A stretch of DNA of 64,000 bases, taken from positions 384,638 to 448,637 of the forward strand of contig NZ_LT965955.1 in the NCBI RefSeq assembly GCF_900240995.1, read 5' to 3'. The position numbers and the translations under genes were made by a program. Of the stretch, positions 854-46,954 are shown piece after piece (positions within the stretch are counted from its first letter, which is position 1; each line of letters opens with the position of its first letter). The stretch is from Bacillus sp. Marseille-P3661. GTDB taxonomy: Bacteria > Bacillota > Bacilli > Bacillales > Bacillaceae_J. The notes under the pieces are model-generated. The model was given only the letters and a program-made list of their open reading frames with translations, did no database searches and was not told the DNA's origin.

Positions 854-890
854 TGTATAGTACGGGGATGGATCTAAAGGAGGTGTTCAT

Positions 891-1556
891 TTGTTTTGGC
901 TGCGAAATTCAATAACAATTCCACTGGATGATACACTTCCATTGTCTACGCCTATTCGGGATACTCCGTTTACAGTTTACGATACAGAAACAACCGGCTT
1001 TCAAATGGCAACTACTGACCGATTAATCGAAATTGGAGCGGTACATATGAGAGGATATGAAGTGCTTGGACATCATACATACCAAACATACGTCAAGCCA
1101 AAGCGTGCTATTCCTCCGGAAATAACTGAACTAACAGGCATTAACGATCACAAGGTGAAAAGCGCACCTGAATCGCTCGATGCGATTGGTAACTTTCTTG
1201 ATTTTATTAAAAGCAACAACAGCGTGGCACTGGTCGGACATTATGTGGCATTTGATATGCTGGTGTTAAAACAAGAGCTCCGCCGTGCCAAACAAGTTTT
1301 AAAAAAAGCGAAAACAATTGATACATTAGATATGATTGGTTTTTTAAGTCCAACAGCAAAAGATATGCGCGATTTAGAGCAATATGCGATCGCCTTCGGA
1401 ACGCGAATTTATGAGCGCCATTCTGCTTTAGGCGATGCACTAACGACAGCATTTTTGTATAGTGAGCTGCTGCAGCAGTTCATCGATCGCGGTTATAAAA
1501 CATGGGGAGAATTAATTCAATATAGTGGTGCTGAAACGAGGATGCTTTCGTTTTAG
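891..1556 (+). CDS. DnaQ/PolC-like 3'-5' exonuclease (DEDDh)
   Basis: A 221-residue exonuclease of the DnaQ (DNA polymerase III epsilon-like) superfamily. The DEDDh motifs are visible: DTETTG with D31 and E33 (Exo I), a middle block around GHYVAFD (Exo II), and HSALGDA (Exo III) carrying the catalytic His and last Asp. These residues bind two metal ions and hydrolyse DNA or RNA 3' ends. There is no polymerase or PHP domain, so it is a stand-alone repair or RNA-processing enzyme rather than PolC. The start is TTG at 891, seven bases after a perfect AAAGGAGG (876-883). It is a single gene flanked by the direct repeats upstream and a gene-poor stretch downstream. Confidence 0.88.
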   Translation: MFWLRNSITIPLDDTLPLSTPIRDTPFTVYDTETTGFQMATTDRLIEIGAVHMRGYEVLGHHTYQTYVKPKRAIPPEITELTGINDHKVKSAPESLDAIGNFLDFIKSNNSVALVGHYVAFDMLVLKQELRRAKQVLKKAKTIDTLDMIGFLSPTAKDMRDLEQYAIAFGTRIYERHSALGDALTTAFLYSELLQQFIDRGYKTWGELIQYSGAETRMLSF

Positions 1557-1558
1557 CT

Positions 1559-1602
1559 GAAAGGGAGGAGCGGTTTACTTGTTCTTCTCTTTTTTTTATT
1601 AT
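1559..1602 (+). terminator. Possible weak terminator of the exonuclease gene
   Basis: AAAGGGAGGAG can pair with CTTCTCTTTTT (several G-U pairs) across a 13-base loop, followed by more T residues. The stem is weak. Confidence 0.3.
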
Positions 1603-1927
1603 GAGGATGAGCTAGTTGTAAATAGTGCGTGTATTTTTGTCACTAAATATGAGGAAAATTACCACACACATGGGCGTACCGCATTACCCTAAAACCGGCC
1701 TTTAAAATTCACTAAAAAGGGACGCAGGTTAGAGCTGAGGATAGATCCTTAATGGAGCAGCTCCAACCAAACCGCTTGCAAATTCTAAAATCCGCTTAGA
1801 AATCAAAAATTTGGATTATAAATGGCCTGAAATGGACTATAAATCTAGAAATTCCGCTTAGAAGCAGCATGTAAGTTAATGAAGGGCCATTATTGTATTA
1901 AAATATGTAAATCACATATCATCCCTA
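1603..1927. other. Gene-free stretch
   Basis: No coding sequence is supported between the exonuclease gene and the convergent membrane-protein gene. A short word CCGCTTAGAA occurs twice (about 1792 and 1855) in similar A/T-rich context. Nothing else was recognised. Confidence 0.5.
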
Positions 1928-2413
1928 TTACGCCCGAACTGCTGAATTTCGACTCTCCATCCTCTTTCCTCGTATAAACCTTTTGTAATAGGTCACCAGA
2001 ATAAAAAATAATATCGGATTAAGTATAACCGAGTGCCAAATAGTCCACCATCCATAATGAAAATAGCCCCATGGTTCAGGTAGCAATGCTATTGTTTCGT
2101 AAATTAAAATGATAATGACCCAAATCGCAATATAGCCTGCTTGTTTCCAGTAAGAGCTTTTAAACGGATACCAGTTGATAAACATCATATTTACCGGAGG
2201 TAGCAAAACAGTATGTGCTAGTAGACCACCCCAATCAATATCCTTTGTAAAATACCAATATCCCGTGTACTTAATATCAACAAAGATGTCAAAAAGATTT
2301 TGAAAAGCAAGTGTAAATGCCCAAATATGCGCAATTTGAGTCCTCGATAGAGTGGTATTTGTTTTAAAAGCTAATAGATTAAAAATTAAAATAGCAGTTA
2401 ATAAACCGATCAT
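1928..2413 (-). CDS. CBO0543-type integral membrane protein
   Basis: A small polytopic membrane protein of about 161 residues with four or five hydrophobic segments and conserved aromatic/acidic blocks such as DIKYTGYWYF and PEPWGYFHYGWW. This pattern fits the CBO0543 family found in Bacillus and relatives, whose function is unknown. I place the start at the ATG at 2413, directly after GGGAGAGAG, because family members begin with the first membrane helix. A TTG at 2479 in the same frame would add 22 residues but has a poorly spaced ribosome binding site. The protein ends in a basic tail (KRFIRGKR). It stands alone, convergent with the exonuclease gene. Confidence 0.75.
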   Translation of the reverse strand: MIGLLTAILIFNLLAFKTNTTLSRTQIAHIWAFTLAFQNLFDIFVDIKYTGYWYFTKDIDWGGLLAHTVLLPPVNMMFINWYPFKSSYWKQAGYIAIWVIIILIYETIALLPEPWGYFHYGWWTIWHSVILNPILFFILVTYYKRFIRGKRMESRNSAVRA

Positions 2414-3356
2414 ATCTCTCTCCCATAAAATTCCATATAATATGTCTACAGTTTTACCAATCTTCAAAAAATTAAACAACTAAAAATAATACCTCTTACA
2501 TATCACGGTATTGTTCTATCGTTACCTATGTCCCCAAAATAGTAATTAATAGCTTTTGATTAGCGCTAGAAAATACAAATTAATATAGAAAATGACACGA
2601 TCCCATTATAATCTTCGAAAAAATTTCCGTTCTGGGATATGTGTCGAATAAATATAGTATTCAACTATATGGGTGTTGTATATAATAGTTTTTAGGGCAA
2701 TAGAACTATAATTTATTTGGAAAAATGATAGGTTGTTAATTTTTGAGTGTCAATTGCACTAGATTTGATTAGTGCAAAAGGGATGCAGTGTTTAAAAGTA
2801 TGGAAGATAGGAGTTGGTACCATGGGAATCTAAAGTGAGTAAAAAAAGTATTCTTTTAAAAAAATCGTTAAACCTCAAAACTAGATTTTATTGAAATGTT
2901 TACAACTACTACCTCCGCAAAAAAAGGTAAAAACAAAATGAATGGCTATAAAACTCCACATTATCTCTCCTTACTAGCATTAGTATTAATAGAGTTGAGC
3001 TTTACACTTAACTTGATATTGCCTGAACGAGCCTTTCTAGGCATGTATTCAGGATTCAGTGGGTTTTCATACATAATGGTGAAATAGCAGCTTTTTTTAG
3101 ATAATAAAAATTTATTTGCAATAGAATAATACTAAAACTATTAGATATGTAGACTCAGTTTCATAGGGATAAAAGGATAGATAATAAAGAAAAGGGTTTG
3201 AAGTAATGAGGGATATAGAATTAGTGCATTTATTTTATTGAGTCATTTCAAAATTTGAAAAGTGAGTTTTTCTAAAATATTCATGACTAAAAGTCACTAC
3301 GCAATAAGTAATCAGTAAATTAAAATTATTTAAAAAAGTAAATAAGGGGGAAAAAA
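2414..3356. other. Long intergenic region ahead of the giant SLH gene
   Basis: About 940 bases, A/T-rich. An 8-bp inverted repeat TTGCACTA / TAGTGCAA lies at 2754-2777. A reading frame at 2896-3087 has no usable ribosome binding site and is not called. The region presumably contains the divergent promoters for the flanking genes and a leader for the giant gene, but no -35/-10 pair with good spacing stood out. Confidence 0.5.
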
Positions 3357-6300
3357 ATGACTGGTAGGCCTTATAAAAAATTAATACGGAAGAAACGGCG
3401 ACTCATCAATATGCTGCTTGTAAGTTTGTTGTTTATCAACTTTCTTCAACCCTTATCAAGTGTTCAAGCGGCACGTACAACTATTGATATTAATGATCTA
3501 AGTTCATGGAATAATGTGAGTGTATTTTATCCTGACTCAACTAGCGATGCTGGGGGTGGGGGATATGAACTCACAAAATTTTATGTGGCGAACGATGCTA
3601 ATGCAATCTATTTTAGATGGGATGTTCAGCTTGACAACAAAACTGCTGAATTAGCTTCAACCAATCTAGGGGCTGCGTTATCAACCAGCGAGAGTGGGGC
3701 AACAGCCAATGCGATGGTATGGCTGTTATTTGATTCTAAAAGTACACTTAGTTCTTCAGTTGTAAACCTAACTGGGTCAGGTAGTGTTTCCATAGATCAA
3801 TCAGATATAACTCGGTTTGGTGAAGGAACTAAAGAGTCACTAGTAAGTGTAGTTGCAAGGGTTGACTTTTCTTTATTTCAAGATTTAGGATTTGGGGCTA
3901 ATTTCAATGCGGACGCAACATTTCCGTTATGGGCCCAAACAAATGCCAGTCAACAACCGACAGCCAGAGATAAAGATAGAATTCCTGATTCAGGCTATTT
4001 TAAGTATGATGCCCTAAATGGTACCGCAGACCTGATAGGTTCGGGCGCAACAGCACCAAGTCCGCCGACTGCAACAGCAGGGTCTGGTACAGTGATTGTA
4101 AGTGGGCAACCGAATGCGATTATAAAGTTATATGATTCAGATGGGACTATCGTTCAAACAGGAACGGCAGATGGAAATGGCAATTATACATTTATAGACG
4201 TTGCGGACGGGACTTATACAGTAACGCAAACAGTTAATATGGTAGAAAGTGCAAAATCTAGTCCAGTAACGGTCGTGTCAGGTGATTTAGATGCACCTAT
4301 CATAACGCTAAACGGTGATAGCTCAATAAGGATTATCGAGGGAGCGACCTATAACGATGCAGGCGCTACAGCTCAAGACGAAACAGATGGTGATATTAGC
4401 GGTAATATTGATGTAACCGGGTTACCAGCTGATACAAATACTATAGGTACTTATACTATTCGGTACAATGTGAGTGACTCAGCAGGAAATGCAGCGCAAG
4501 AAGTAACTCGGACCTTAACAATAGCACCTAAAGCTCCTAATGCTACGAGTGGTGCAGGCACTGTAATTGCAAGTGGAGCGAATCCTAATGCAACGTTAAA
4601 ATTATACAATGCAGATGGAAATGCAGTTCAAACAGGAACTGCGGATAGCGATGGAACGTTTACATTTACAGGTGTAGCGGGCGGGAACTATACGGTCAAG
4701 CAAACTGTTATTGATATCGAAAGTGATGCATCTAATACGGTTACAGTAGAAACTGCAGATTCAGATGCACCTATTATTACTTTAAATGGTAATAGCTCGG
4801 TAAGGATTATAGCAGGGGCAGCATATACAGATGCAGGAGCAACTGCATCAGATATAAAGGATGGTGACCTTACTAATAAAATCAAAGTTACAGGGTTACC
4901 AGCAGACACTTCTGTACCTGGAACATATACAATTCGCTACAATGTGAGTGATTCAGCGGGCAATGCAGCACCAGAAGTAACACGGACGTTTACGATAGCA
5001 CCAGCTGCTCCGACTGGAACCGGAAGTTCAGGGACAGTGAATGTAACTGGGGCAACTGCAGATGCCATAGTAACTTTATACGATTCAGATGGAGAAGTCG
5101 TAAAAACAGGCACGGCAAATGGAGATGGAACGACAACATTTACCGGAGTTGCGGACGGTACTTATACGGTCAAGCAAACTGTTAATGGTATTGAAAGTGA
5201 TGCATCTAATACGATTACAGTAGATACCACTGATACAGATGCACCAGTCATTACTTTAAATGGTAATAGCTCGATAAGGATTGTAGCGGGAGCAGCATAT
5301 ATAGATGCAGGAGCAACAGCATCAGATATAAAGGATGGTGACCTTACTAATAAAATCAAAGTTACAGGGCTACCAGTAGATACTTCTGTTCCGGGAACTT
5401 ATACAATCCGTTACAATGTCAGCGATACAACAGGCAATGCAGCACCAGAAGTAACCCGTACGTTGACCATAGCACCAGCTGCGCCGACTGGAACCGGAAG
5501 TTCCGGAACGGTGAATGTAACTGGGGCAATGCCAAATGCTCCGGTGAAACTTTACAATGCAGATGGTGAGGTTGAACAAACAGGAACAGCTGATGGCAAT
5601 GGAACGTTTACATTTACAGACGTAGCGGACGGAACTTATACGGTGAAACAAACTGTTAATGGGGTAGAAAGTGATGAATCTAATACGATAACGGTTGTAA
5701 CAGCAGATGTAGACGCACCAGTTATCACGTTAAAAGGTGATAACTCAATAAGGATAATAGCAGGTGCGAAATATTCTGATGCAGGAGCTACCGCATTAGA
5801 CGAAAAAGATGGAGATTTAACTAATAAAATTACCGTTACAGGAGAACCAACTAACACAACAGCACCAGGGACCTACACAATCCGTTATAATGTAAGCGAT
5901 ACAGCAGGAAATCCAGCGCAAGAAGTAACCCGTACGTTGATAATAGCACCAGCAGCACCAACTGGAACCGGAAGTTCAGGTAAAGTGGATGTAACTGGTG
6001 CAACACCAAATGAAACGGTAACGTTGTACGATGCAAATGGTAATGTCGTAACGACAGGAACAGCGGATGACAACGGAAGAATAACATTTACAGACCTTAC
6101 AAGTGGTAATTATACGGTTAAGCAAACTGTAAATGGTGTTGATAGTGATGAATCAAGCCAGATAAATGTAGATTCAACAAAACCGGTGATTACGCTAGTT
6201 GGTGATCCAGCCGTAAGAATCATAGCAGGAACTACTTATACTGATGCAGGGGCAACTGCAACAGACGAAACGGATGGCGACTTAACAAATAATATTACCG

Positions 6301-9300
6301 TTTCAGGATTACCTGATAACATTAATACACCAGGCACTTACACAATTCGTTACAACGTCAGCGATGAAGGTGGTAATACTGCGCAGGAAGTAACCCGTAC
6401 GTTGACCATAGCGCCACCTGCACCGAGCGGAACAGGAAGTTCAGGAACCGTGAATGTAACTGGTGCAATGCCAAATGAGACGGTAACGTTATATGATGCA
6501 GAGAATAATATCGTAAAAACAGGACTAGCAAATGATGATGGGACGATAACATTTACCGGAGTATCAGATGGGACTTATACAGTAAAGCAAACTGTTAATA
6601 GCATTGAGAGTGATGGGAATCAGGTAAATGTAGTAACAATAGACTCATATTCGCCAGTGATCACGCTAGTTGGTGATTCATCCGTCCGAATCATTGTAGG
6701 GGCAATTTATACGGATGCAGGAGCAACTGCGACGGACGAAAAAGATGGTGACTTAACTAATAAAATTAACGTCGCAGGGGTACCAACGGATACAACGGCA
6801 CCAGGGACATACACAATTCGTTACAACGTCAGCGATGCAGCCGGGAATACGGCGCAAGAAGTAACCCGTACGCTAACAATAGCGCCAGCCGCACCAAGCG
6901 GAATGGGAAGCTCAGGTAAAGTAGATGTAACGGGGGCGATGCCAGATGCAACAGTAACACTATACGATGCAAATGTTAATGAGGTAACAACAGGACTAGC
7001 AGATGGTGAAGGAAGGATAACATTTACAGACCTTTCAAGTGGAAATTATACGGTTAAGCAAACTGTAAATGGCATTGATAGCGATAAATCTGGCCAGATA
7101 TATGTAGATTCAACAAAACCGGTGATCACGCTGGTTGGTGATACTGCAGTCCGAATCATTGCGGGAGCTACTTATACTGATGCAGGAGCTAACGCGACAG
7201 ATGAAACGGATGGAGACTTAACAAATAATATTAACGTAACAGGATTACCTGATAACATTAATACACCAGGCACTTATACAATTCATTACAACGTTAGCGA
7301 TATGGCTGGGAATCAAGCTCAGGAAGTAACGCGTAAGCTAACAATAGCGCCAGCCGCACCAACCGGAACTGGAAGTTCAGGTAAAGTGGATGTCACGGGT
7401 GCAACACCAAATGAAATGGTAACGTTGTACGATGTAAATGGTGATGAGGTAACAACAGGAACAGCGGATGACAACGGAAGGATAACATTTACAGACCTTA
7501 CAAGTGGTACCTATACGGTTAAGCAAACTGTAAATGGTATTGATAGTGATACTTCAAACCCAATACAAGTAGATTCAACAGTACCAGTGATTACGCTGGT
7601 TGGTGATCCAGCTGTCCGAATCATTGCGGGAGCAACTTACACTGATGCAGGAGCTAACGCGACAGATGAAACGGATGGAGACTTAACAAATAATATTAAC
7701 GTAACAGGAATACCAGAAAACATTAATACACCAGGCACTTACACAATTCGTTACAACGTCACCGATACAGCGGGCAACGCAGCGCAAGAAGTAACGCGAA
7801 CGTTAACTATAGCGCCAGCTGCACCAATCGGAACTGGAAGTTCAGGTAAAGTGGATGTAACGGGTGCAACACCAAATGAAACGGTAACGTTGTACGATGC
7901 AAATGGTGATGAGGTAACAACAGGAACAGCTGACAACGACGGAACGATAACATTTACAGATCTTACAAGCGGAAACTATACTGTTAAGCAAACTGTAAAT
8001 GGTGTTGAAAGTGATGCATCGAGCCAAATATATGTAGATTCAACAAAACCGGTGATCACGCTAGTTGGTGATCCAGCTGTCCGAATCATAGCGGGAGCAA
8101 CTTACACTGATGCAGGAGCTAACGCGACAGATGAAACGGATGGAGACTTAACAAATAATATTAACGTAACAGGATTACCTGATAACATTAATACACCAGG
8201 CACTTACACAATTCATTACAACGTTAGCGATATGGCTGGGAATCAAGCTCAGGAAGTAACGCGTACGCTAACCATAGCCCCAGCTGCACCAATCGGAACT
8301 GGAAGTTCAGGAAAAGTTGATGTAACGGGAGCCATGCCAGATGCAACAGTAACGTTGTACGATGCAAGTGGTAATGAGGTAACAACAGGAACAGCAGATG
8401 GTGAAGGAAGTATAACATTTACAGATCTTACAAGTGGAAATTATACGGTTAAGCAAACTGTAAATGGAGTGGATAGTGATGAATCCAACCAGATATATGT
8501 AGATTCAACAAAACCAGTGATCACGCTAGTTGGTGATCCAGCTGTTCGAATCATAGCAGGAGCAACTTACACTGATGCAGGTGCTAACGCGATAGATGAA
8601 ACGGATGGAGACTTAACAAATAAAATTACTATCACAGGAGTGCCAGATACCACAACAGCACCAGGGATTTACACAATTGGTTACAATGTCAGTGATACAG
8701 CAGGCAATGCAGCGCAAGAAGTAACCCGTACGCTGACAATAGCGCCAGCGACACCTACCGGAATAGGAAGTTCAGGGGAAGTGAATGTCACTGGAGCAAT
8801 GCCAAATGCGACTGTAACACTATACGATACCAATGGTGATGTTGTAACAACAGGAACTGCAAATGGCGAAGGCCATCTAACATTTACAGATCTTACAAGT
8901 GGTAATTATACAGTTAAGCAAACTGTAAATGGAGTGGATAGTGATGAATCCAACCAGATAAATGTAGATTCAACAAAACCGGTGATCACGCTAGTTGGTG
9001 ATCCAGCTGTCCGAATCATTGCGGGAGCAACTTACACTGATGCAGGAGCTAACGCGACAGATGAAACGGATGGAGACTTAACAAATAATATTAACGTAAC
9101 AGGAATACCAGAAAACATTAATACACCAGGCACTTACACAATTCGTTACAACGTCACCGATACAGCGGGCAACGCAGCGCAAGAAGTAACGCGAACGTTA
9201 ACTATAGCGCCAGCTGCACCAATCGGAACTGGAAGTTCAGGTAAAGTGGATGTAACGGGTGCAACACCAAATGAAACGGTAACGTTGTACGATGCAAATG

Positions 9301-12300
9301 GTGATGAGGTAACAACAGGAACAGCTGACAACGACGGAACGATAACATTTACAGATCTTACAAGCGGAAACTATACTGTTAAGCAAACTGTAAATGGTGT
9401 TGAAAGTGATGCATCGAGCCAGATATATGTAGATTCAACAAAACCGGTGATCACGCTAGTTGGTGATCCAGCTGTCCGAATCATTGCGGGAGCAACTTAC
9501 ACTGATGCAGGAGCTAACGCGACAGATGAAACGGATGGAGACTTAACAAATAATATTAACGTAACAGGATTACCTGATAACATTAATACACCAGGCACTT
9601 ACACAATTCATTACAACGTTAGCGATATGGCTGGGAATCAAGCTCAGGAAGTAACGCGTACGCTAACCATAGCCCCAGCTGCACCAATCGGAACTGGAAG
9701 TTCAGGAAAAGTTGATGTAACGGGAGCCATGCCAGATGCAACAGTAACGTTGTACGATGCAAATGGTAATGAGGTAACAACAGGAACAGCAGATGGTGAA
9801 GGAAGTATAACATTTACAGATCTTACAAGTGGAAATTATACTGTTAAGCAAACTGTAAATGGAGTGGATAGTGATGAATCCAACCAGATATATGTAGATT
9901 CAACAAAACCGGTGATCACGCTAGTTGGTGATCCAGCTGTCCGAATCATTGCGGGAGCAACTTACACTGATGCAGGAGCTAACGCGACAGATGAAACGGA
10001 TGGAGACTTAACAAATAATATTAACGTAACAGGAATACCAGAAAACATTAATACACCAGGCACATACACAATTCTTTACAACGTCAGCGATGCAGCCGGC
10101 AATGCTGCGCAGGAAGTAACGCGGACGTTAACAATAGCGCCAGCAGCACCAACCGGAACTGGAAGTTCAGGTAAAGTGGATGTAACGGGTGCAACGCCAA
10201 ACGCAACGGTAACACTATACGATGCAAATGGTAATGAGGTAACAACAGGAACAGCAGATGGTGAAGGAAATATAACATTTACAGATCTTACAAGTGGAAA
10301 TTATACTGTTAAGCAAACTGTAAATGGAGTGGATAGTGATGAATCCAACCAGATATATGTAGATTCAACAAAACCGGTGATCACGCTGGTTGGTGATCCT
10401 GCAGTCCGAATCATTGCGGGAGCTACTTATACTGATGCAGGAGCAACTGCAATAGACGAAAAAGATGGAGATCTAACAAATAAACTTAGCGTAAATGGAA
10501 TACCAGCAGATACAGCAACACCAGGCATTTACACAATTCGCTACAACGTTAGCGATACAGCTGGAAACCAAGCGCAAGAAGTAACCCGAACGTTAACAAT
10601 TGCACCAACGACTCCAACCGGAACAGGCAGCTCAGGTAAAGTGGAAGTAACAGGTGCAACGCCAAACGCAACGGTAACGTTATATGATGAGGATGGCAAT
10701 GCCGTTAAAACGGGAACAGCAGATAACGATGGAACGATAACTTTTACAGATCTTCCAGAAGGTACCTATACAGTTAAGCAAACTGTTAACGGTGTCGAAG
10801 GTGACGCCACTGGCCCAATCTTTGTAGATACTACAGGCCCAGTGATCACACTAGTTGGTGATCCAGCCGTGCGAATTATAGCTGGAGCTACTTACACCGA
10901 TGCCGGAGCATCTGCAACAGACGAAACCGATGGCGACATAAGCAACAATATCGTCATCGCAGGAATACCAGCAGACACAACAACACCAGGCACTTACACA
11001 ATTCGCTTCAATGTTAGCGATGCAGCTGGAAATCAAGCGCAGGAGGTAACCCGTACGTTGACCATAGCGCCAGCAGCACCAACTGGAACAGGAAGTTCTG
11101 GCAAAGTAGATGTAACGGGTGCAACACCAAACGCAACGGTAACGTTGTACGATGCAAATGGTAATGAGGTAACAACAGGAACAGCTGACAACGACGGAAC
11201 GATAACATTTACAGACCTTACAACTGGTAATTATACAGTTAAGCAAACTGTAAATGATGTTGAGAGTGATGCATCGAGCCAGATATATGTGGATTCAACT
11301 AAACCAGTGATCGCGCTAGTTGGTGACCCGGCCGTACGAATCGTAGCAGGAGCAACTTACACGGATTCAGGAGCTAACGCAACAGACGAAACCGATGGCG
11401 ACATAAGCAACAATATCGTCATCACAGGAATACCAGCAGATACAGCAACACCAGGCATTTACACAATTCGCTACAACGTTAGCGATACAGCTGGAAACCA
11501 AGCGCAAGAAGTAACCCGAACGTTAACAATTGCACCAACGACTCCAACCGGAACAGGCAGCTCAGGTAAAGTGGAAGTAACAGGTGCAACGCCAAACGCA
11601 ACGGTAACGTTATATGATGAGGATGGCAATGCCGTTAAAACGGGAACAGCAGATAACGATGGAACGATAACTTTTACAGATCTTCCAGAAGGTACCTATA
11701 CAGTTAAGCAAACTGTTAACGGTGTCGAAGGTGACGCCACTGGCCCAATCTTTGTAGATACTACAGGCCCAGTGATCACACTAGTTGGTGATCCAGCCGT
11801 GCGAATTATAGCTGGAGCTACTTACACCGATGCCGGAGCATCTGCAACAGACGAAACCGATGGCGACATAAGCAACAATATCGTCATCGCAGGAATACCA
11901 GCAGACACAACAACACCAGGCACTTACACAATTCGCTTCAATGTTAGCGATGCAGCTGGAAATCAAGCGCAGGAGGTAACCCGTACGTTGACCATAGCGC
12001 CAGCAGCACCAACTGGAACAGGAAGTTCTGGCAAAGTAGATGTAACGGGTGCAACACCAAACGCAACGGTAACGTTGTACGATGCAAATGGTAATGAGGT
12101 AACAACAGGAACAGCTGACAACGACGGAACGATAACATTTACAGACCTTACAACTGGTAATTATACAGTTAAGCAAACTGTAAATGATGTTGAGAGTGAT
12201 GCATCGAGCCAGATATATGTGGATTCAACTAAACCAGTGATCGCGCTAGTTGGTGACCCGGCCGTACGAATCGTAGCAGGAGCAACTTACACGGATTCAG

Positions 12301-15300
12301 GAGCTAACGCAACAGACGAAACCGATGGCGACATAAGCAACAATATCGTCATCACAGGAATACCAGCAGACACAACAACACCAGGCACTTACACAATTCG
12401 CTTCAATGTTAGCGATGCAGCTGGAAATCAAGCGCAGGAGGTAACCCGTACGTTGACCATAGCGCCAGCAGCACCAACTGGAACAGGAAGTTCTGGCAAA
12501 GTAGATGTAACGGGTGCAACACCAAACGCAACGGTAACGTTGTACGATGCAAATGGTAATGAGGTAACAACAGGAACAGCTGACAACGACGGAACGATAA
12601 CATTTACAGACCTTACAACTGGTAATTATACAGTTAAGCAAACTGTAAATGATGTTGAGAGTGATGCATCGAGCCAGATATATGTGGATTCAACTAAACC
12701 AGTGATCGCGCTAGTTGGTGACCCGGCCGTACGAATCGTAGCAGGAGCAACTTACACGGATTCAGGAGCTAACGCAACAGACGAAACCGATGGCGACATA
12801 AGCAACAATATCGTCATCACAGGAATACCAGCAAACACCACAACACCAGGCACTTACACAATTAACTACAACGTTAGCGATACAGCTGGGAATCAAGCGC
12901 AAGAAGTAACTCGTACGCTGACAATTGCGCCAGTAGCACCAACCGGAACTGGAAGTTCAGGTAAAGTGGAAGTAAAAGGTGCAACGCCAAACGCAACGGT
13001 AACACTATACGATGCAAATGGTAATGAGGTAACAACAGGAACAGCAGATGATAGCGGAAGGATAACATTTACAGATCTTACTAGTGGGAACTATACAGTA
13101 AAGCAAACTGTAAATAGCGTCGAAAGTGATCTATCCAACCAGATATATGTAGATTCAACAAAGCCAGTGATCACACTAGTTGGTGATCCAGCCGTGCGAA
13201 TTATAGCTGGAGCTACTTACACCGATGCCGGAGCATCTGCAACCGACGAAACCGATGGCGACATAAGCAACAATATCGTCATCGCAGAAATACCAGCAGA
13301 CACAGCAACACCAGGCACTTACACAATTCGCTACAACGTTAGCGATACAGCTGGGAATCAAGCGCAAGAGGTAACCCGTACGTTGACCATAGCGCCAGCA
13401 GCACCAACTGGAACAGGCAGCTCTGGTAAAGTGGAGGTAACGGGTGCAACGCCAAACGCAACGGTAACACTATACGATGCAGTTGGTAATGAGGTAACAA
13501 CAGGAACAGCGGATAACGACGGAAGTATAACATTTACAGACCTTACAAGTGGTAATTATACGGTTAAGCAAACTGTAAATGGTATTGAAAGCGATACTTC
13601 AAACCTAATACAAGTCGATTCAACAAAACCAGTGATCTCGCTAGTTGGTGATCCAGCCGTACGGATCATAGCTGGAACTGCTTACACCGATGCAGGAGCA
13701 ACTGCAACAGACGAAACCGATGGCGACATAAGCAACAATATCGTCATCGCAGGAATACCAGCAGACACAGCAACACCAGGCACTTACACAATTCGCTACA
13801 ACGTTAGCGATACAGCTGGGAATCAAGCTCAAGAGGTAACCCGAACGTTAACAATCGCACCAACCACACCAACCGGAACTGGAAGCTCTGGTAAAGTGGA
13901 TGTAACAGGTGCAACGCCAAACGCAACCGTAACGTTGTACGATGAAGAAGGTAATGTTGTAAAAACGGGAACAGCAGATAACGATGGAACAATAACTTTT
14001 ACAGATGTTCCAGAAGGAACCTACACAGTTAAGCAAACCGTTAACGATGTCGAAGGTGATGCTACAGGCCCAATCTATGTAGATACTACAGGCCCAGTGA
14101 TCACGCTAGTTGGTGATCCAGCCGTACGGATCATAGCTGGAACTGCTTACACCGATGCAGGAGCAACTGCAACAGACGAAACCGATGGCGACATAAGCAA
14201 CAATATCGTCATCGCAGGAATACCAGCAGACACAGCAACACCAGGCACTTACACAATTCGCTACAACGTTAGCGATACAGCTGGGAATCAAGCTCAAGAG
14301 GTAACCCGAACGTTAACAATCGCACCAACCACACCAACCGGAACAGGCAGCTCTGGTAAAGTGGATGTAACAGGTGCAACGCCAAACGCAACCGTAACGT
14401 TGTACGATGAAGAAGGTAATGTTGTAAAAACGGGAACAGCAGATAACGATGGAACAATAACTTTTACAGATGTTCCAGAAGGAACCTACACAGTTAAGCA
14501 AACCGTTAACGATGTCGAAGGTGATGCTACAGGCCCAATCTATGTAGATACTACAGGCCCAGTGATCACGCTAGTTGGTGATCCAGCCGTACGGATCATA
14601 GCTGGAACTGCTTACACCGATGCAGGAGCAACTGCAACAGACGAAACCGATGGCGACATAAGCAACAATATCGTCATCGCAGGAATACCAGCAGACACAG
14701 CAACACCAGGCACTTACACAATTCGCTACAACGTTAGCGATACAGCTGGGAATCAAGCTCAAGAGGTAACCCGAACGTTAACAATCGCACCAACCACACC
14801 AACCGGAACTGGAAGCTCTGGTAAAGTGGATGTAACAGGTGCAACGCCAAACGCAACCGTAACGTTGTACGATGAAGAAGGTAATGTTGTAAAAACGGGA
14901 ACAGCAGATAACGATGGAACAATAACTTTTACAGATGTTCCAGAAGGAACCTACACAGTTAAGCAAACCGTTAACGATGTCGAAGGTGACGCCACTGACC
15001 CAATCCATGTAGATACTACAGGCCCAGTGATCTCGCTAGTTGGTGATCCAGCCGTACGGATCATAGCAGGAGCAACTTACACGGATGCAGGAGCAAATGC
15101 GACAGATGAAACCGATGGCGACATCAGCAATAATATCGTCATCACAGGAATACCAGCAGATACTGCAACACCAGGCACTTACACAATTCGCTACAATGTT
15201 AGTGATACAGCTGGGAATCAAGCTCAAGAGGTAACCCGAACGTTAACAATCGCACCAACCACTCCAACTGCAACAGGCAGCTCAGGTAAAGTGGAAGTAA

Positions 15301-18125
15301 CAGGTGCAACGCCAAACGAAACAGTAACGTTGTATGATGAAGAAGGTAATGGGGTAAAAACGGGAACAGCAGATAACGATGGAACGATCACATTTACAGA
15401 TCTTCCGGAAGGGGATTACACAGTTAAGCAAACTGTTAATGATATTGAAAGTGATGTCACAGGTCCAATCCATGTGGATAATACTGTTCCAGTAATCACG
15501 CTAGTTGGCGAACCATCTGTACAAATCATAGCGGGAACTACTTACACTGATGCAGGAGCCACCGCAACAGACGAAACCGATGGCGACATAAGCAACGATA
15601 TCGTCACCACCGGAATACCGGCGGACACAGCAACACCAGGCGTCTACACAATCCGCTACAATGTCAGTGATGCAGCCGGCAATGCCGCGCAAGAAGTAAC
15701 GCGGAGCTTGACAATTATACCAAGTGCTCCGGCAATTACAGCTACCACTGACGGCTCTGGTTCAGTTACTGTTCATGGTTCCATTCCGGGAGCAGAGGTC
15801 ATTTTATACGACAAAGATGGTAATGAAGTTGGCAAGATTACTGCAGATCAGAATGGAAGTGCAACCTTTAACGATGTTCCGGCAGGCATTAATTATACGG
15901 TTACTCAATCAATCAATGGGCAAACAAGTGGGAAATCGAATAATGTGAATGTCCTAAAGGCTATAGGAAGTGAAGATGGAGTCAAAACTGTTACAGTTCA
16001 TGGAGCGACACCAGGATCAACTGTAAGTCTTTATAATAATAAAGACGTGATCATCAAGACTGGAACTCCAAATGAAGAGGGGATCCTTCAGTTTACAGAC
16101 GTTCCTGAAGGAATTGACTATTATGTAACAGAAACAGTGGCTGGTAACGAAGGAGATCCTTCTAATAAAGTTAATGTTTACCCTAAAGTAGCCGTTCGTT
16201 ATTCTGAAGGTGATATTTGGGAAAGTGTTACTAAACCCGTATTTCTTGTTAAAGATCAATCCGATACTACTATTACATGGACATCTGATAAACCAAATGT
16301 AGTTGAGGTTGGAACAGGATTTATAATAGAAGAAGGAAGAATCTTCCCGGAATACACTGCTACTGTACACCGCCAGCCGAATGATACGAGTGTCATTTTG
16401 ACTGCAAAAGGTACGAAGAATGGCAACGAGTACGAACGAACATTTTTACTGATTGTAAAAGGTACATTGTATAAAACAGAAAAAGAGACAAAACCGAGTA
16501 CAAATGATGTTCAAGTTGAAAGTGGAAATATCAGTAATGCTGGTATAGAAGTCACTCGAACATCCCTTACAAGTAATGATAATGCTGTAAGTGGACAGTT
16601 AGTGGATAAACTTCTAGTTAAAGGGGATGCTTTACCAGCTGCTCAAGACGATGTGGAAATCTCATTTGATGATAAGCCAAATGGGTCGAATGTAAGAGCA
16701 GATGAAATCGGTGTTGAAATCTTGGCAGGTGCATTAGGTCAAATCAATAATACACTGAAGGTAAATACACCAGAAGCATCAATTAACATTCCTGCGGCTT
16801 CGTTGACTGGAATGAAGAATGCTGGAATCGACTTGTTCTTCCATATCGTTCCGATTCGGTCTCAGGAAAAAAGGAATGAAGTGATTCAACGAACTAGAAA
16901 TGAAATGCAGAATGAAGCGGGGAATAATTCGTTAGAAGTTTTAGATATTCCTAGGGAAATAGAAACGAATTATACCGGCTATTCAACAGAGATCACTTTA
17001 CCACTAGACAATGTAAATATAACAGCTAATGAAGTGAGTCGATTGCGCCTACTCATAGAACATACAGATGGAACCATTGAAATTATTACGCCAAATCAAA
17101 ATGGTACGATTGTAGTTGATGGTAATGGGCGTCCGATTGGTTTAACTTTTAGTATTAGCAAATTTAGTACCTTTACGTTCTTTAAAGTTGTACCACCACA
17201 ACCACCAAGCGGAGGTGGCGGAGGTTCATCATCAAGTAGCACAAATGAACTTAAAGTCACCATAACAGACCATGAAATATCGGAAAACGAGCTTAAAATC
17301 AATGGAGAAACAGTTCCGAATAAAGAAGTTACGATTTATCTTGACGAAAAATCTATTGGTACTGTAAAAGCTGATTCTCAAGGAGAATTTACTTACTCCA
17401 TAGATATTTCCTTGTTAAAGGAAGGAGTTCATGATATTTATGCAACTGTAAAAGATTCAGATGGTGATTCTGTTAAAAGTAATGGTATAAAATTTGCGCT
17501 GCATTTCGAACATCTAAGATATGTTAATGGTTATCCTGATGGACAATTTAAGCCTTTAAACAACATTACAAGAGCCGAGATGGCAGCTATACTTTCGCGT
17601 ATTCTAGAGGTAGAAGACGCGCCAATGACGGATGTTTCATATCCAGATGTTCCTAAATCATTCTGGGGATCAGATGCGATCAAGATTATGAATAATGCCA
17701 AATTGATGGTCGGCTATGAGGATGGAAATTTCTATCCGAATAAGCCAATCACAAGAGGTGAAATGGCAGCTACGATTCTTAGATATATGAAGGATACTAA
17801 TCAAGGATATTCTGAATACTCCTTCAAGGATATAACGTCACATTGGGCAAGAAATGATATCGAAAAATTACAAGAAAAAGGTATTATGAAAGGCTATCCA
17901 GACGGATTATTTTACCCATCAAAGAATTTAACGAGAGAAGAAGCGGTTGTGATTATTAATAGGGTATTAAACAGAGGTGGGTTGTATGGTGAGTTTACAC
18001 CAACATGGCCTGATGTTAAACCTAGTCAATGGTCCTATCATGATATTGAAGAAGCTTCAACTAGTCACGAAGGGTACTATCGTCCTGATGGAAATGAAGC
18101 ATGGATTCGTTTTATAGAAGAATAA
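3357..18125 (+). CDS. Giant modular SLH-anchored surface protein (4,922 aa)
   Basis: A secreted wall-bound protein. Residues 1-38 are a signal peptide (basic KKLIRKKRR, hydrophobic core, VQA cleavage site). Residues about 40-230 form a unique N-terminal domain. Residues about 234-4120 hold about 25 copies of a 155-residue module; each has a short beta-sandwich of the SdrD-B/carboxypeptidase-regulatory kind (GSSGKVDVTGATPNATVTLY) followed by a DUF5011-type Ig-like domain ending EVTRTLTI. Two more divergent short domains, a larger beta-rich region and a Gly/Ser linker follow. The C-terminus has SLH motifs (GYPDGQFKP...ITRAEMA, GYEDGNFYPNKPITRGEMA, GYPDGLFYPSKNLTREEA); the first unit has only its second half and the last (WPDVKPSQW) only its first. 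SLH domains bind wall polymers, so a stalk or adhesin role is likely. The start follows AAGGGGG by six bases. No catalytic domain was seen. Confidence 0.93.
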   Translation: MTGRPYKKLIRKKRRLINMLLVSLLFINFLQPLSSVQAARTTIDINDLSSWNNVSVFYPDSTSDAGGGGYELTKFYVANDANAIYFRWDVQLDNKTAELASTNLGAALSTSESGATANAMVWLLFDSKSTLSSSVVNLTGSGSVSIDQSDITRFGEGTKESLVSVVARVDFSLFQDLGFGANFNADATFPLWAQTNASQQPTARDKDRIPDSGYFKYDALNGTADLIGSGATAPSPPTATAGSGTVIVSGQPNAIIKLYDSDGTIVQTGTADGNGNYTFIDVADGTYTVTQTVNMVESAKSSPVTVVSGDLDAPIITLNGDSSIRIIEGATYNDAGATAQDETDGDISGNIDVTGLPADTNTIGTYTIRYNVSDSAGNAAQEVTRTLTIAPKAPNATSGAGTVIASGANPNATLKLYNADGNAVQTGTADSDGTFTFTGVAGGNYTVKQTVIDIESDASNTVTVETADSDAPIITLNGNSSVRIIAGAAYTDAGATASDIKDGDLTNKIKVTGLPADTSVPGTYTIRYNVSDSAGNAAPEVTRTFTIAPAAPTGTGSSGTVNVTGATADAIVTLYDSDGEVVKTGTANGDGTTTFTGVADGTYTVKQTVNGIESDASNTITVDTTDTDAPVITLNGNSSIRIVAGAAYIDAGATASDIKDGDLTNKIKVTGLPVDTSVPGTYTIRYNVSDTTGNAAPEVTRTLTIAPAAPTGTGSSGTVNVTGAMPNAPVKLYNADGEVEQTGTADGNGTFTFTDVADGTYTVKQTVNGVESDESNTITVVTADVDAPVITLKGDNSIRIIAGAKYSDAGATALDEKDGDLTNKITVTGEPTNTTAPGTYTIRYNVSDTAGNPAQEVTRTLIIAPAAPTGTGSSGKVDVTGATPNETVTLYDANGNVVTTGTADDNGRITFTDLTSGNYTVKQTVNGVDSDESSQINVDSTKPVITLVGDPAVRIIAGTTYTDAGATATDETDGDLTNNITVSGLPDNINTPGTYTIRYNVSDEGGNTAQEVTRTLTIAPPAPSGTGSSGTVNVTGAMPNETVTLYDAENNIVKTGLANDDGTITFTGVSDGTYTVKQTVNSIESDGNQVNVVTIDSYSPVITLVGDSSVRIIVGAIYTDAGATATDEKDGDLTNKINVAGVPTDTTAPGTYTIRYNVSDAAGNTAQEVTRTLTIAPAAPSGMGSSGKVDVTGAMPDATVTLYDANVNEVTTGLADGEGRITFTDLSSGNYTVKQTVNGIDSDKSGQIYVDSTKPVITLVGDTAVRIIAGATYTDAGANATDETDGDLTNNINVTGLPDNINTPGTYTIHYNVSDMAGNQAQEVTRKLTIAPAAPTGTGSSGKVDVTGATPNEMVTLYDVNGDEVTTGTADDNGRITFTDLTSGTYTVKQTVNGIDSDTSNPIQVDSTVPVITLVGDPAVRIIAGATYTDAGANATDETDGDLTNNINVTGIPENINTPGTYTIRYNVTDTAGNAAQEVTRTLTIAPAAPIGTGSSGKVDVTGATPNETVTLYDANGDEVTTGTADNDGTITFTDLTSGNYTVKQTVNGVESDASSQIYVDSTKPVITLVGDPAVRIIAGATYTDAGANATDETDGDLTNNINVTGLPDNINTPGTYTIHYNVSDMAGNQAQEVTRTLTIAPAAPIGTGSSGKVDVTGAMPDATVTLYDASGNEVTTGTADGEGSITFTDLTSGNYTVKQTVNGVDSDESNQIYVDSTKPVITLVGDPAVRIIAGATYTDAGANAIDETDGDLTNKITITGVPDTTTAPGIYTIGYNVSDTAGNAAQEVTRTLTIAPATPTGIGSSGEVNVTGAMPNATVTLYDTNGDVVTTGTANGEGHLTFTDLTSGNYTVKQTVNGVDSDESNQINVDSTKPVITLVGDPAVRIIAGATYTDAGANATDETDGDLTNNINVTGIPENINTPGTYTIRYNVTDTAGNAAQEVTRTLTIAPAAPIGTGSSGKVDVTGATPNETVTLYDANGDEVTTGTADNDGTITFTDLTSGNYTVKQTVNGVESDASSQIYVDSTKPVITLVGDPAVRIIAGATYTDAGANATDETDGDLTNNINVTGLPDNINTPGTYTIHYNVSDMAGNQAQEVTRTLTIAPAAPIGTGSSGKVDVTGAMPDATVTLYDANGNEVTTGTADGEGSITFTDLTSGNYTVKQTVNGVDSDESNQIYVDSTKPVITLVGDPAVRIIAGATYTDAGANATDETDGDLTNNINVTGIPENINTPGTYTILYNVSDAAGNAAQEVTRTLTIAPAAPTGTGSSGKVDVTGATPNATVTLYDANGNEVTTGTADGEGNITFTDLTSGNYTVKQTVNGVDSDESNQIYVDSTKPVITLVGDPAVRIIAGATYTDAGATAIDEKDGDLTNKLSVNGIPADTATPGIYTIRYNVSDTAGNQAQEVTRTLTIAPTTPTGTGSSGKVEVTGATPNATVTLYDEDGNAVKTGTADNDGTITFTDLPEGTYTVKQTVNGVEGDATGPIFVDTTGPVITLVGDPAVRIIAGATYTDAGASATDETDGDISNNIVIAGIPADTTTPGTYTIRFNVSDAAGNQAQEVTRTLTIAPAAPTGTGSSGKVDVTGATPNATVTLYDANGNEVTTGTADNDGTITFTDLTTGNYTVKQTVNDVESDASSQIYVDSTKPVIALVGDPAVRIVAGATYTDSGANATDETDGDISNNIVITGIPADTATPGIYTIRYNVSDTAGNQAQEVTRTLTIAPTTPTGTGSSGKVEVTGATPNATVTLYDEDGNAVKTGTADNDGTITFTDLPEGTYTVKQTVNGVEGDATGPIFVDTTGPVITLVGDPAVRIIAGATYTDAGASATDETDGDISNNIVIAGIPADTTTPGTYTIRFNVSDAAGNQAQEVTRTLTIAPAAPTGTGSSGKVDVTGATPNATVTLYDANGNEVTTGTADNDGTITFTDLTTGNYTVKQTVNDVESDASSQIYVDSTKPVIALVGDPAVRIVAGATYTDSGANATDETDGDISNNIVITGIPADTTTPGTYTIRFNVSDAAGNQAQEVTRTLTIAPAAPTGTGSSGKVDVTGATPNATVTLYDANGNEVTTGTADNDGTITFTDLTTGNYTVKQTVNDVESDASSQIYVDSTKPVIALVGDPAVRIVAGATYTDSGANATDETDGDISNNIVITGIPANTTTPGTYTINYNVSDTAGNQAQEVTRTLTIAPVAPTGTGSSGKVEVKGATPNATVTLYDANGNEVTTGTADDSGRITFTDLTSGNYTVKQTVNSVESDLSNQIYVDSTKPVITLVGDPAVRIIAGATYTDAGASATDETDGDISNNIVIAEIPADTATPGTYTIRYNVSDTAGNQAQEVTRTLTIAPAAPTGTGSSGKVEVTGATPNATVTLYDAVGNEVTTGTADNDGSITFTDLTSGNYTVKQTVNGIESDTSNLIQVDSTKPVISLVGDPAVRIIAGTAYTDAGATATDETDGDISNNIVIAGIPADTATPGTYTIRYNVSDTAGNQAQEVTRTLTIAPTTPTGTGSSGKVDVTGATPNATVTLYDEEGNVVKTGTADNDGTITFTDVPEGTYTVKQTVNDVEGDATGPIYVDTTGPVITLVGDPAVRIIAGTAYTDAGATATDETDGDISNNIVIAGIPADTATPGTYTIRYNVSDTAGNQAQEVTRTLTIAPTTPTGTGSSGKVDVTGATPNATVTLYDEEGNVVKTGTADNDGTITFTDVPEGTYTVKQTVNDVEGDATGPIYVDTTGPVITLVGDPAVRIIAGTAYTDAGATATDETDGDISNNIVIAGIPADTATPGTYTIRYNVSDTAGNQAQEVTRTLTIAPTTPTGTGSSGKVDVTGATPNATVTLYDEEGNVVKTGTADNDGTITFTDVPEGTYTVKQTVNDVEGDATDPIHVDTTGPVISLVGDPAVRIIAGATYTDAGANATDETDGDISNNIVITGIPADTATPGTYTIRYNVSDTAGNQAQEVTRTLTIAPTTPTATGSSGKVEVTGATPNETVTLYDEEGNGVKTGTADNDGTITFTDLPEGDYTVKQTVNDIESDVTGPIHVDNTVPVITLVGEPSVQIIAGTTYTDAGATATDETDGDISNDIVTTGIPADTATPGVYTIRYNVSDAAGNAAQEVTRSLTIIPSAPAITATTDGSGSVTVHGSIPGAEVILYDKDGNEVGKITADQNGSATFNDVPAGINYTVTQSINGQTSGKSNNVNVLKAIGSEDGVKTVTVHGATPGSTVSLYNNKDVIIKTGTPNEEGILQFTDVPEGIDYYVTETVAGNEGDPSNKVNVYPKVAVRYSEGDIWESVTKPVFLVKDQSDTTITWTSDKPNVVEVGTGFIIEEGRIFPEYTATVHRQPNDTSVILTAKGTKNGNEYERTFLLIVKGTLYKTEKETKPSTNDVQVESGNISNAGIEVTRTSLTSNDNAVSGQLVDKLLVKGDALPAAQDDVEISFDDKPNGSNVRADEIGVEILAGALGQINNTLKVNTPEASINIPAASLTGMKNAGIDLFFHIVPIRSQEKRNEVIQRTRNEMQNEAGNNSLEVLDIPREIETNYTGYSTEITLPLDNVNITANEVSRLRLLIEHTDGTIEIITPNQNGTIVVDGNGRPIGLTFSISKFSTFTFFKVVPPQPPSGGGGGSSSSSTNELKVTITDHEISENELKINGETVPNKEVTIYLDEKSIGTVKADSQGEFTYSIDISLLKEGVHDIYATVKDSDGDSVKSNGIKFALHFEHLRYVNGYPDGQFKPLNNITRAEMAAILSRILEVEDAPMTDVSYPDVPKSFWGSDAIKIMNNAKLMVGYEDGNFYPNKPITRGEMAATILRYMKDTNQGYSEYSFKDITSHWARNDIEKLQEKGIMKGYPDGLFYPSKNLTREEAVVIINRVLNRGGLYGEFTPTWPDVKPSQWSYHDIEEASTSHEGYYRPDGNEAWIRFIEE
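4060..15715 (+). repeat. Array of about 25 coding repeats, period 465 bp
   Basis: The EVTR-TLTI block recurs 25 times between about 4500 and 15700, mostly exactly 465 bp apart; the first few modules are slightly longer. Copies near the 5' end are divergent, copies in the 3' half are almost identical. Blocks of two modules repeat at an offset of 1395 bp (about 7600-8520 with 8995-9915) and 930 bp (about 10500-11430 with 11430-12360), and one module is present three times in a row between about 13660 and 15060. Confidence 0.95.
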
Positions 18126-18146: not shown

Positions 18147-18188
18147 AGCCGATTTTTCCCCATAAGGGTTAAAATCGGCTGTTTTTAT
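18147..18188 (+). terminator. Rho-independent terminator of the giant SLH gene
   Basis: Stem AGCCGATTTT (18147-18156) pairs perfectly with AAAATCGGCT (18171-18180) and is followed by GTTTTT. Confidence 0.85.
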
Positions 18189-18281: not shown

Positions 18282-19157
18282 TTACCTCACCACAATTTTA
18301 TGCCCCTTACTGCCACTGACCGCACCTTCTACTTGATAACTCTTATGTAGTCCTGTTTTGCACCAAATTGCAAAATGCTCGCAGTTATTGAAAGCAAGGT
18401 TATATCCATTACAGCCTATTTTACTTTTTGCTCGCTGTACTGTTTCAGAAGGCGAGTATAGCTTCATAAGATATTTATCTGGGATTTTAGGAGTTGGTGG
18501 AGCAAATTCAGAAGAAACAGGGACTTTAGTTGGCTGATCATCATCACCGTAAATCATTTCTTCAAAATCTAAGATAAAAAACGATGTTTGATCTTTTAAG
18601 AAGTGGGCCATATCCGTTTCCATGATTTCGTTATCGTTCGATGTATCAGAATCCATCGATGTAAAATGAATGACGCGATTGTTGCCAACATACACACCAT
18701 AATGCTCATAAAGCCCACCCATTCTTGAAATGCCGATCACATCACCGTACTCGACTTTTGTTTTGGACCTGTTTGTGGTTTTCTTCATTGAAGAAGTGAG
18801 TGCTTTTTTACGTTGTTCAGCAGTTGCGTATTTATAGTCTCCAGTTCCTAGTGCTGCATCAGCTTTATCGCCGATATCCTCAAGCGTATCTCCGAGCTTA
18901 TCCCGTATTAACGGGCAGTAATGATTCCCTTTCCGAATTTCAATTGAAAGTATATCGAAATTGGGAATCAACTGCCCGTAAAAACCCGATTAGTTCAACT
19001 AACCATCAGTGGAAAACCACCACTGATGGAGTTTCACTGTATCAAGCTTGTGATTTACTTTTTTATCAAGCTTATCTAATTTTTCATTTTGCGAATCGGC
19101 CCAATCTGCAATGAAATCAAAGGCACCTTTGTCTCTTAATTTTCTAAAAAAACTCAC
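18282..19157 (-). pseudogene. LRAT-domain protein gene, interrupted in frame by a palindromic insertion
   Basis: The 3' part (18282 to about 18900) encodes an LRAT-type (NlpC/P60-related) thiol acyltransferase/hydrolase fold: GDVIG, HYGVYVGNNRVIHF with the catalytic His, and NNCEHFAIWCKTG with the catalytic Cys. The 5' part starts at GTG 19157, nine bases after AAGGAG, and reads SFFRKLRDKGAFDFIADW... for 52 codons to TAG (19001-18999). Both parts are in the same frame and are separated by about 137 bp of palindromic DNA (18901-19037) that adds TAG and TAA stops. The longest frame for the 3' part starts at a TTG (18971) inside the insertion, without a ribosome binding site. I infer an originally continuous gene of about 245 codons, now broken. 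LRAT proteins in bacteria are poorly characterised; the substrate is unknown. Confidence 0.65.
18901..19037. mobile_element. Palindromic REP/MITE-like insertion inside the LRAT gene
   Basis: Two hairpins lie side by side: CCATCAGTGG / CCACTGATGG (19003-19029, 7-base loop), and ACGGGCAGTAATGATTCCC (18911-18929) opposite GGGAATCAACTGCCCGT (18963-18979), with one 2-base bulge. The flanking DNA reads as a continuous LRAT-gene frame if the element is removed, which sets the approximate borders. It encodes nothing. No second copy was found in this window. Confidence 0.65.
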
Positions 19158-26599: not shown

Positions 26600-26674
26600 T
26601 ATTGATAAATTACAAATAAATACTATTTTCCCATTACTTTGGCAATGGAAATGGTTTTATTGGAGGAATTGAAA

Positions 26675-28330: not shown

Positions 28331-28418
28331 TGTTTCTAAAAAATGTGGAGTGGAGGCGATGGTTTAAAATAATTATCAAAAATTCAACTAAATAATTTAG
28401 AAAAAAGGAGGTCTACGA

Positions 28419-33872: not shown

Positions 33873-33878
33873 TGGATA

Positions 33879-33907
33879 AGAGAGCTTAAGTGTTGCTTAA
33901 GCTCTCT
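33879..33907 (+). promoter_or_regulatory. Perfect intercistronic hairpin without T-run
   Basis: AGAGAGCTTAAG pairs perfectly with CTTAAGCTCTCT across 5 bases. Because no T-run follows and the next ribosome binding site is about 15 bases on, it may stabilise or partly terminate the operon mRNA. Confidence 0.55.
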
Positions 33908-33932
33908 GTCAAATTGTAATGGGAGGAAAAAA

Positions 33933-46953: not shown

Positions 46954-46954
46954 A

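What the first reader, a model, noticed from the sequence alone, without database searches (positions are those of the whole stretch)
3357..18125. 4,922-residue SLH protein with about 25 near-identical modules
A single frame of 14.8 kb encodes a wall-anchored fibre of alternating small beta domains and DUF5011-type Ig domains. At about 3,900 residues of repeat it could extend far from the cell, as giant adhesins do.
Basis: partly seen in the sequence, partly recalled or inferred. Interest (0 to 1): 0.7.

Follow-up and report, generated by a model that had tools for sequence, protein, structure and literature searches.

The report
Giant wall-anchored rod of repeated domains
This gene encodes one very long bacterial surface protein, an unknown tip on a stalk of 25 repeated two-domain units held to the cell wall by S-layer homology domains; it is a clear but ordinary example of the known fibrillar adhesin or 'periscope' type of protein, and its binding partner and length variation are untested.

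Summary
One open frame (3357-18125, 4,922 aa) has a ribosome-binding site, signal peptide, a 198-aa N-terminal region of no known family, a stalk of 25 Ig-like (PF16403, formerly DUF5011) domains alternating with prealbumin-like domains (155-aa period), pre-anchor domains, three SLH domains and a strong terminator. 'Near-identical' is too strong: modules share 65-100% of DNA. Synonymous differences are about four times non-synonymous ones, so this is a selected coding array with local recent duplications (one exact 944-bp block). Ten full 16S genes resolved in 11 contigs suggest a long-read assembly, so an artefact is unlikely. AlphaFold folds one module confidently (pLDDT 95.9); nearest solved folds include the Bap C region, Big_3, SiiE and GhpA. 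The genome has csaB, needed for SLH anchoring. In 396 other genomes of the order no comparable array appeared; relatives read in full carry one to three Ig domains, under SLH or LPXTG anchors. Most likely it is a fibrillar-adhesin or periscope-type stalk, roughly 0.2 micrometre long, lifting an unidentified tip past the S-layer and capsule. Adhesion and length variation are unproven. New member of a known kind; low to moderate interest.

The parts
3344..3350 (+). ribosome-binding site AAGGGGG, six bases before ATG
   Evidence: sequence read directly
3357..3470 (+). signal peptide, residues 1-38 (basic KKLIRKKRR stretch, hydrophobic core, SSVQA|A)
   Evidence: read from the translation; no signal-peptide program was available
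3471..4064 (+). N-terminal region, residues 39-236, putative distal head, no known family
   Evidence: no Pfam or NCBIfam match; no homologue in 397 other phylum genomes, only two marginal ones in 381 other order genomes; AF2 model low confidence, beta-rich; weak likeness to the N-terminal domain of other giant proteins, hhalign E 0.0044, probability 7.8%
4065..4280 (+). first prealbumin-like stalk domain, residues 237-308
   Evidence: own profile, 83 bits
4296..15953 (+). 25 tandem modules, each an Ig-like domain (PF16403) plus a prealbumin-like domain; 155-158 aa period
   Evidence: AF2 of one module pLDDT 95.9, pTM 0.85
10497..12370 (+). 944-bp block 10497-11440 repeated exactly two modules later at 11427-12370 (recent duplication)
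15987..16178 (+). last prealbumin-like stalk domain, residues 4211-4274
16185..16460 (+). atrophied bacterial Ig domain (aBig_2, PF20578), residues 4277-4368
16494..17186 (+). pre-anchor domain, about residues 4380-4610, shared by SLH-anchored and LPXTG-anchored surface proteins of the order
17190..17240 (+). Pro/Gly/Ser linker (PPQPPSGGGGGSSSSS)
   Evidence: sequence
17265..17492 (+). Big_13/Big_6-like domain, residues 4637-4712
17502..18122 (+). three SLH domains and short tail (wall anchor)
   Evidence: PF00395, three stretches; related to S-layer proteins Sap and SbsB in PDB; 47% identical to the SLH end of a 3,280-aa protein of another family
18147..18187 (+). intrinsic terminator: hairpin plus T run
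   Evidence: -19.7 kcal/mol, z -5.75

Best explanation
The gene makes a secreted, SLH-anchored fibrillar protein. The three C-terminal SLH domains bind pyruvylated secondary cell-wall polymer. The pre-anchor domains cross the wall and S-layer zone. The 25 Ig/prealbumin pairs form a stiff rod, roughly 0.2 micrometre if fully extended, that carries the 198-aa N-terminal head beyond the S-layer and capsule to contact a surface, polymer or another cell. Recombination between modules in register changes the rod length without breaking the frame, so it should behave as a 'periscope' protein. Alternating two unrelated domains means that almost no two neighbouring domains are alike in sequence, which may avoid the misfolding risk of identical neighbours while keeping long DNA identity for recombination. 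Shown here by computation: architecture, confident predicted fold of one module, csaB in the genome, purifying selection, local duplication history. Inferred: rod stiffness and length, adhesive function of the head, length variation.
For: Architecture from Pfam and own profiles. Module model pLDDT 95.9, pTM 0.85, made only from the protein's own repeats. Foldseek's best match is the S. aureus Bap C region (7dm0), with GhpA, SiiE, Big_3 (2kpn) and BcpA also listed. VIA-align gives Z 10-11 for single domains (BT2262 for the Ig, Bap residues 861-945 for the prealbumin-like) and Z 9.8 to the Bap C region across both, at rmsd 5.2. CsaB 311.7 bits against a cut-off of 213.1. dN/dS about 0.19 among modules with pS above 0.1. 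DNA identity falls with distance along the array, from 0.87 for neighbours to 0.77 twelve modules apart, with exact blocks at whole-module offsets, as expected from unequal recombination. Linkers TIAPxxP and VDSTKP are short and hold proline; neighbouring domains share near chance-level identity (24% against 22% shuffled), while next-nearest neighbours share 79-87%. Papers: fibrillar adhesins of Firmicutes carry the adhesive domain at the N-terminus, repeated stalk domains and an anchor that can be SLH (PMC8286594, PMC9210967); [quoted passage not shown]).
Against: No known adhesive domain is found in the head, and its structure could not be predicted. No second strain was available, so length variation is untested. 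Many modules differ by 15-35% of DNA, so recombination between most of them should be slower than in classic periscope genes; only part of the array is nearly identical. The global score of Ig against prealbumin domains is above shuffled (11.8 against -5.1), so the two may share a remote beta-sandwich likeness. Adhesion, expression and surface display are not observed.
Confidence: 0.62

Rival explanations
1. The protein has no ligand-binding head. It is a structural or shielding component: a long brush or matrix scaffold that spaces the S-layer, capsule and neighbouring cells, and masks other surface proteins.
For: The head matches no adhesive family. Other SLH and Ig-repeat proteins and an exopolysaccharide cluster lie in the same stretch. 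Long periscope proteins such as SasG can act by spatial competition (PMC9704523), and Bap with one C-repeat still makes biofilm (PMC7785521).
Against: A separate 198-aa N-terminal region is kept at the distal end, where Firmicutes fibrillar adhesins carry their adhesive domain.
Confidence: 0.27
2. The head is a carbohydrate- or polymer-binding domain and the protein is a substrate-attachment or nutrient-capture arm rather than a cell-cell adhesin.
For: Weak resemblance of the head to the N-terminal domain of other giant surface proteins of the order (YVANDANAIYFRWDV against YVASDGSNFFVRLRL; hhalign E 0.0044, probability 7.8%). The unreliable head model is a beta fold.
Against: Low confidence throughout; no Pfam carbohydrate-binding family matches; the function of the other giant proteins' domain is unknown too.
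Confidence: 0.2
3. The module number is an assembly artefact (collapse or false expansion of a shorter or longer array).
For: Exact repeats of 944, 479 and 461 bp exist, longer than short reads.
Against: Ten full 16S genes on five contigs are resolved in an 11-contig assembly. Most modules carry many synonymous differences (pS 0.40). Module length differences keep the frame.
Confidence: 0.05

Closest known systems
Periscope proteins (SasG, Rib, Sgo_0707; PMC8201768, PMC9704523)
   Same: wall-attached; N-terminal unique region; tandem array of folded domains with near-identical blocks; short linkers with proline; signs of in-register recombination
   Different: SLH anchor, whereas SasG and Rib are sortase-anchored (own knowledge); two different domain families alternate (SasG also alternates E and G5 domains); many modules only 65-90% alike; no strain comparison
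Staphylococcus aureus Bap (C-repeats)
   Same: best Foldseek match of the module is the Bap C region; long array of beta domains behind an N-terminal region; C-repeat number varies (PMC7785521)
   Different: Bap has 86-aa repeats identical at the nucleotide level and an LPXTG anchor (PMC7785521); no annotated relative of the Bap N-terminal region found here
Fibrillar adhesin-like proteins of Firmicutes (PMC8286594, PMC9210967)
   Same: N-terminal unannotated region, stalk of stalk-type domains, SLH anchor as listed for 72 members of that class
   Different: no known adhesive domain recognised
3,280-aa SLH protein of genome G047 (L045)
   Same: C-terminal part from the last stalk domains on 27-35% and SLH end 47% identical; N-terminal region perhaps distantly alike
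   Different: a different stalk; only two prealbumin-like domains and no PF16403 domain
LPXTG-type proteins with the same pre-anchor domain (L042, L077, L078, L079)
   Same: pre-anchor domain 35-41% identical; L042 has one Ig plus two prealbumin-like domains
   Different: sortase-type C-terminus (LPxTx, hydrophobic stretch, basic tail) in place of SLH; different heads and stalks
Giant1-5 surface proteins of Apilactobacillus kunkeei (3,000-8,000 aa; PMC12863079, abstract only)
   Same: very large extracellular proteins of Firmicutes
   Different: architecture not compared here

Membership tests
Periscope protein | tandem array of highly similar folded domains | tested here: met
   25 modules, some pairs 98-100% identical; confident predicted fold of one module
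Periscope protein | attachment to the cell surface | tested here: met
   by sequence only: signal peptide, three SLH domains, csaB in the genome
Periscope protein | short linkers, some proline-rich, that favour a straight rod | tested here: met
   TIAPxxP and VDSTKP junctions, about four to six residues between strands; straightness itself not measured
Periscope protein | repeat number varies between strains | not testable with these tools
   one genome per species held; recent in-register duplications seen inside the array
Periscope protein | N-terminal ligand-binding domain | tested here: inconclusive
   unique N-terminal region present, function unknown
Fibrillar adhesin | known adhesive domain | tested here: inconclusive
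   no Pfam match in residues 38-235 at E up to 10; this cannot exclude a new adhesive domain
Fibrillar adhesin | repeated stalk domains and a surface anchor | tested here: met
SLH-anchored surface protein | three SLH domains at one end | tested here: met
   PF00395, three stretches
SLH-anchored surface protein | host makes pyruvylated wall polymer (CsaB) | tested here: met
   gene only: TIGR03609, 311.7 bits, cut-off 213.1; polymer not tested
PF16403 (Bact_surface_Ig-like, formerly DUF5011) | profile match over the curated cut-off | tested here: met
   25 domains, each 60-76 bits against 27
Bap family | Bap N-terminal A/B region and C-repeats by sequence | tested here: inconclusive
   fold likeness of the module to the Bap C region; no annotated relative of the head; no direct alignment with Bap made
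CnaB/SpaA-type domain with isopeptide bond | Lys-Asn cross-link with catalytic Glu or Asp | not tested
   the usual Glu of the YxVxE motif (own knowledge) reads Gln (YTVKQ or YTVTQ) in every module of the alignment, which speaks against it; coordinates were not examined

The most novel reading that the evidence does not exclude
The alternation of two different domains is itself the adaptation: it lets the gene keep long DNA identity between modules, hence fast length change, while neighbouring domains stay dissimilar, which removes the misfolding penalty that periscope proteins otherwise risk. The orphan N-terminal region would be a new adhesive domain family.
Probability: 0.2. Interest if true: 0.5.

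Novelty: new member of a known kind. Interest (0 to 1): 0.3.

Why it matters
It adds an SLH-anchored case with a two-domain repeat to a class whose best-studied members are sortase-anchored. The 25-fold alternating array is a convenient natural test of whether alternating domains avoid misfolding between identical neighbours. The shared pre-anchor domain found under both SLH and LPXTG-type anchors suggests that head, stalk and anchor are exchanged as separate parts in this order. If the head binds something, it is a new adhesive domain. None of this overturns current views.

Tried and rejected
Assembly artefact: judged unlikely. Chance repeats: excluded by the TRF score and 25 profile matches. 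Head identity: Pfam and NCBIfam at E up to 10, PDB sequences (only E of 1 or more), plasmids, 398 phylum genomes and 382 order genomes (two marginal matches at 0.004 and 0.04, the first in a frame with stops) gave nothing firm; the single genome-contig scan found only distant Ig-domain relatives in Clostridia. Head structure from a mixed alignment gave pLDDT 52.7 and its Foldseek list has no match at E below 0.001, so it is not used. The first module alignment A1 had one row out of register and was replaced by A2. A paper search for DUF5011 with SLH found nothing. Rfam found no RNA in the window. The organism could not be named; seven genomes of its family are held, in an order that shows at least 47 families.

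Full report
Observation. The frame 3357-18125 on the + strand is open for 4,922 codons. It starts six bases after AAGGGGG and ends before a strong hairpin terminator at about 18147-18187 (-19.7 kcal/mol, z -5.75), so it probably ends its transcript there. The translation begins with a basic stretch, a hydrophobic core and SSVQA|A, a normal signal peptide (read by eye).

Anatomy. Residues 39-236 match nothing. From 237 to 4274 prealbumin-like and Ig-like domains alternate: 27 prealbumin-like and 25 PF16403 domains, the last two prealbumin-like ones adjacent (Pfam). The period is 155-158 residues. Then come aBig_2 (4277-4368), a pre-anchor domain (about 4380-4610), a Pro/Gly/Ser linker, a Big_13/Big_6-like domain and three SLH domains. 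Every PF16403 domain of the 5.37-Mb genome lies in this one gene.

How alike are the modules. Pairwise DNA identity is 65-100% and protein identity 58-100%. Nearly identical groups are 8-9 with 11-12, 15 with 17, and 21-23. The longest exact block is 944 bp at an offset of exactly two modules; other exact blocks lie at one to six modules. Identity falls with distance in the array, from 0.87 for neighbours to 0.77 at twelve modules. This is the pattern of repeated local, in-register duplication. Among the 20 modules of 155 residues, pS is 0.40 and pN 0.10, with dN/dS about 0.19 for pairs with pS above 0.1, so the protein sequence has been under selection.

Is the count real. Exact repeats of 944 bp cannot be resolved by short reads. 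But the assembly holds ten full-length 16S genes on five contigs within 11 contigs, which short reads would normally collapse. I take the module number as probably right, with at most a few modules in doubt in the identical blocks.

Structure. AlphaFold2, given only the protein's own modules, folds one module with pLDDT 95.9 and pTM 0.85 as two beta domains. Foldseek's best match is the Bap C region, followed by others that include GhpA, SiiE, Big_3 and pilin domains. VIA-align gives Z 11.3 at 1.4 Angstrom for the Ig domain (BT2262), Z 11.0 at 2.0 Angstrom for the prealbumin-like domain (Bap residues 861-945), and Z 9.8 with rmsd 5.2 over both domains to the Bap C region. Beta sandwiches match many things, so this supports a common rod-type fold, not kinship of function. 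A PDB sequence search gives ZmpB, the B. anthracis collagen adhesion protein (6fwv), Big_3 and SdrD. Junctions are short and hold proline. At 3.5-4 nm per domain, 52 domains would span about 180-210 nm; that figure is inference.

Anchoring. The SLH end is related by sequence to S-layer proteins Sap and SbsB. The genome has csaB at 311.7 bits against a cut-off of 213.1 and 57 SLH matches in all, so SLH anchoring is in wide use. Pyruvylated wall polymer is the known ligand of SLH domains (abstract of PMC6030368).

Relatives. Among 397 genomes of the order, 31 have a match to the module at E below 1e-10, but none other than this genome shows a comparable array: the relatives read in full carry one to three Ig domains and up to six prealbumin-like ones. 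An Ig followed by a prealbumin-like domain recurs in several families, and in L046 three such pairs stand in a row, so the pair is an old unit that was amplified here. The pre-anchor domain is shared with a 3,280-aa SLH protein and with LPXTG-type proteins that have other heads and stalks. Head, stalk and anchor therefore seem to move as separate parts. Frames of up to 7,162 aa occur in the same order, with an N-terminal domain like that of L045, so the length of 4,922 aa is not exceptional.

Head. It matches no family, no solved sequence and no convincing homologue. A profile of the N-terminal domain of other giant proteins aligns to it weakly over 44 residues (E 0.0044, probability 7.8%). 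Its model is not reliable (pLDDT 52.7). Its role is open.

Mechanism. The best reading is a fibrillar-adhesin or periscope-type protein. Papers define the class by similar folded tandem domains, surface attachment, an N-terminal functional domain and strain-to-strain variation in repeat number (PMC8201768, PMC9704523), and describe N-terminal adhesive domains and SLH anchors among Firmicutes fibrillar adhesins (PMC8286594, PMC9210967). The array, anchor and linkers fit; the head's function and length variation are untested. One feature stands out: neighbouring domains are nearly unrelated in sequence (24% identity against 22% for shuffled), while domains two places apart are 79-87% identical. 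That could reconcile fast recombination with safe folding, but it is a hypothesis, and SasG alternates E and G5 domains in a similar way.

Verdict. A real, well-built example of a known kind. It is worth recording for its two-domain repeat and SLH anchor, not as a new system.

Noticed in passing
138-861: Noncoding tandem repeat, period 309, 2.3 copies, rich in ATGTCCGG/CCGGACAT; one further near copy lies about 1.7 kb before the window start (G000:C3:382917) and about 50 partial matches are scattered in the genome. Looks like a family of intergenic repeats.
   Followed up: partly
61109 to beyond the window end (G000:C3:445745-452911): A second giant protein, 2,389 codons, with three SLH domains at its N-terminus and blocks of nearly identical repeats of about 180 residues near the C-terminus.
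   Followed up: partly
L048/L049, G000:C3:454495-461469: A third giant, 2,325 codons, ending in SLH domains; its pre-anchor domain is 36% identical to that of the window protein.
   Followed up: partly
39223-55730: Exopolysaccharide or capsule cluster (O-antigen ligase-like, glycosyltransferases, sugar transferase, MurJ-like flippase, asparagine synthase) between surface-protein genes.
   Followed up: no
26639-35324: Subtilase followed by two Big_6 repeat proteins of 1,817 and 463 aa; the larger has a 270-bp tandem repeat.
   Followed up: no
36332-38539: 735-aa protein with C-terminal copper amine oxidase N1 domains and a sub-threshold BslA match.
   Followed up: no
L092, L094, L106 (genomes G167, G191, G116): Frames of 6,778 to 7,162 aa that begin with a shared N-terminal domain unknown to NCBIfam (and, for the L045 form, to Pfam); the one read in part (L119) seems to start without a signal peptide and runs on with weakly prealbumin-like repeats.
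   Followed up: partly
18282-18971 (-): LRAT/NlpC-P60-type protein convergent with the giant gene.
   Followed up: no
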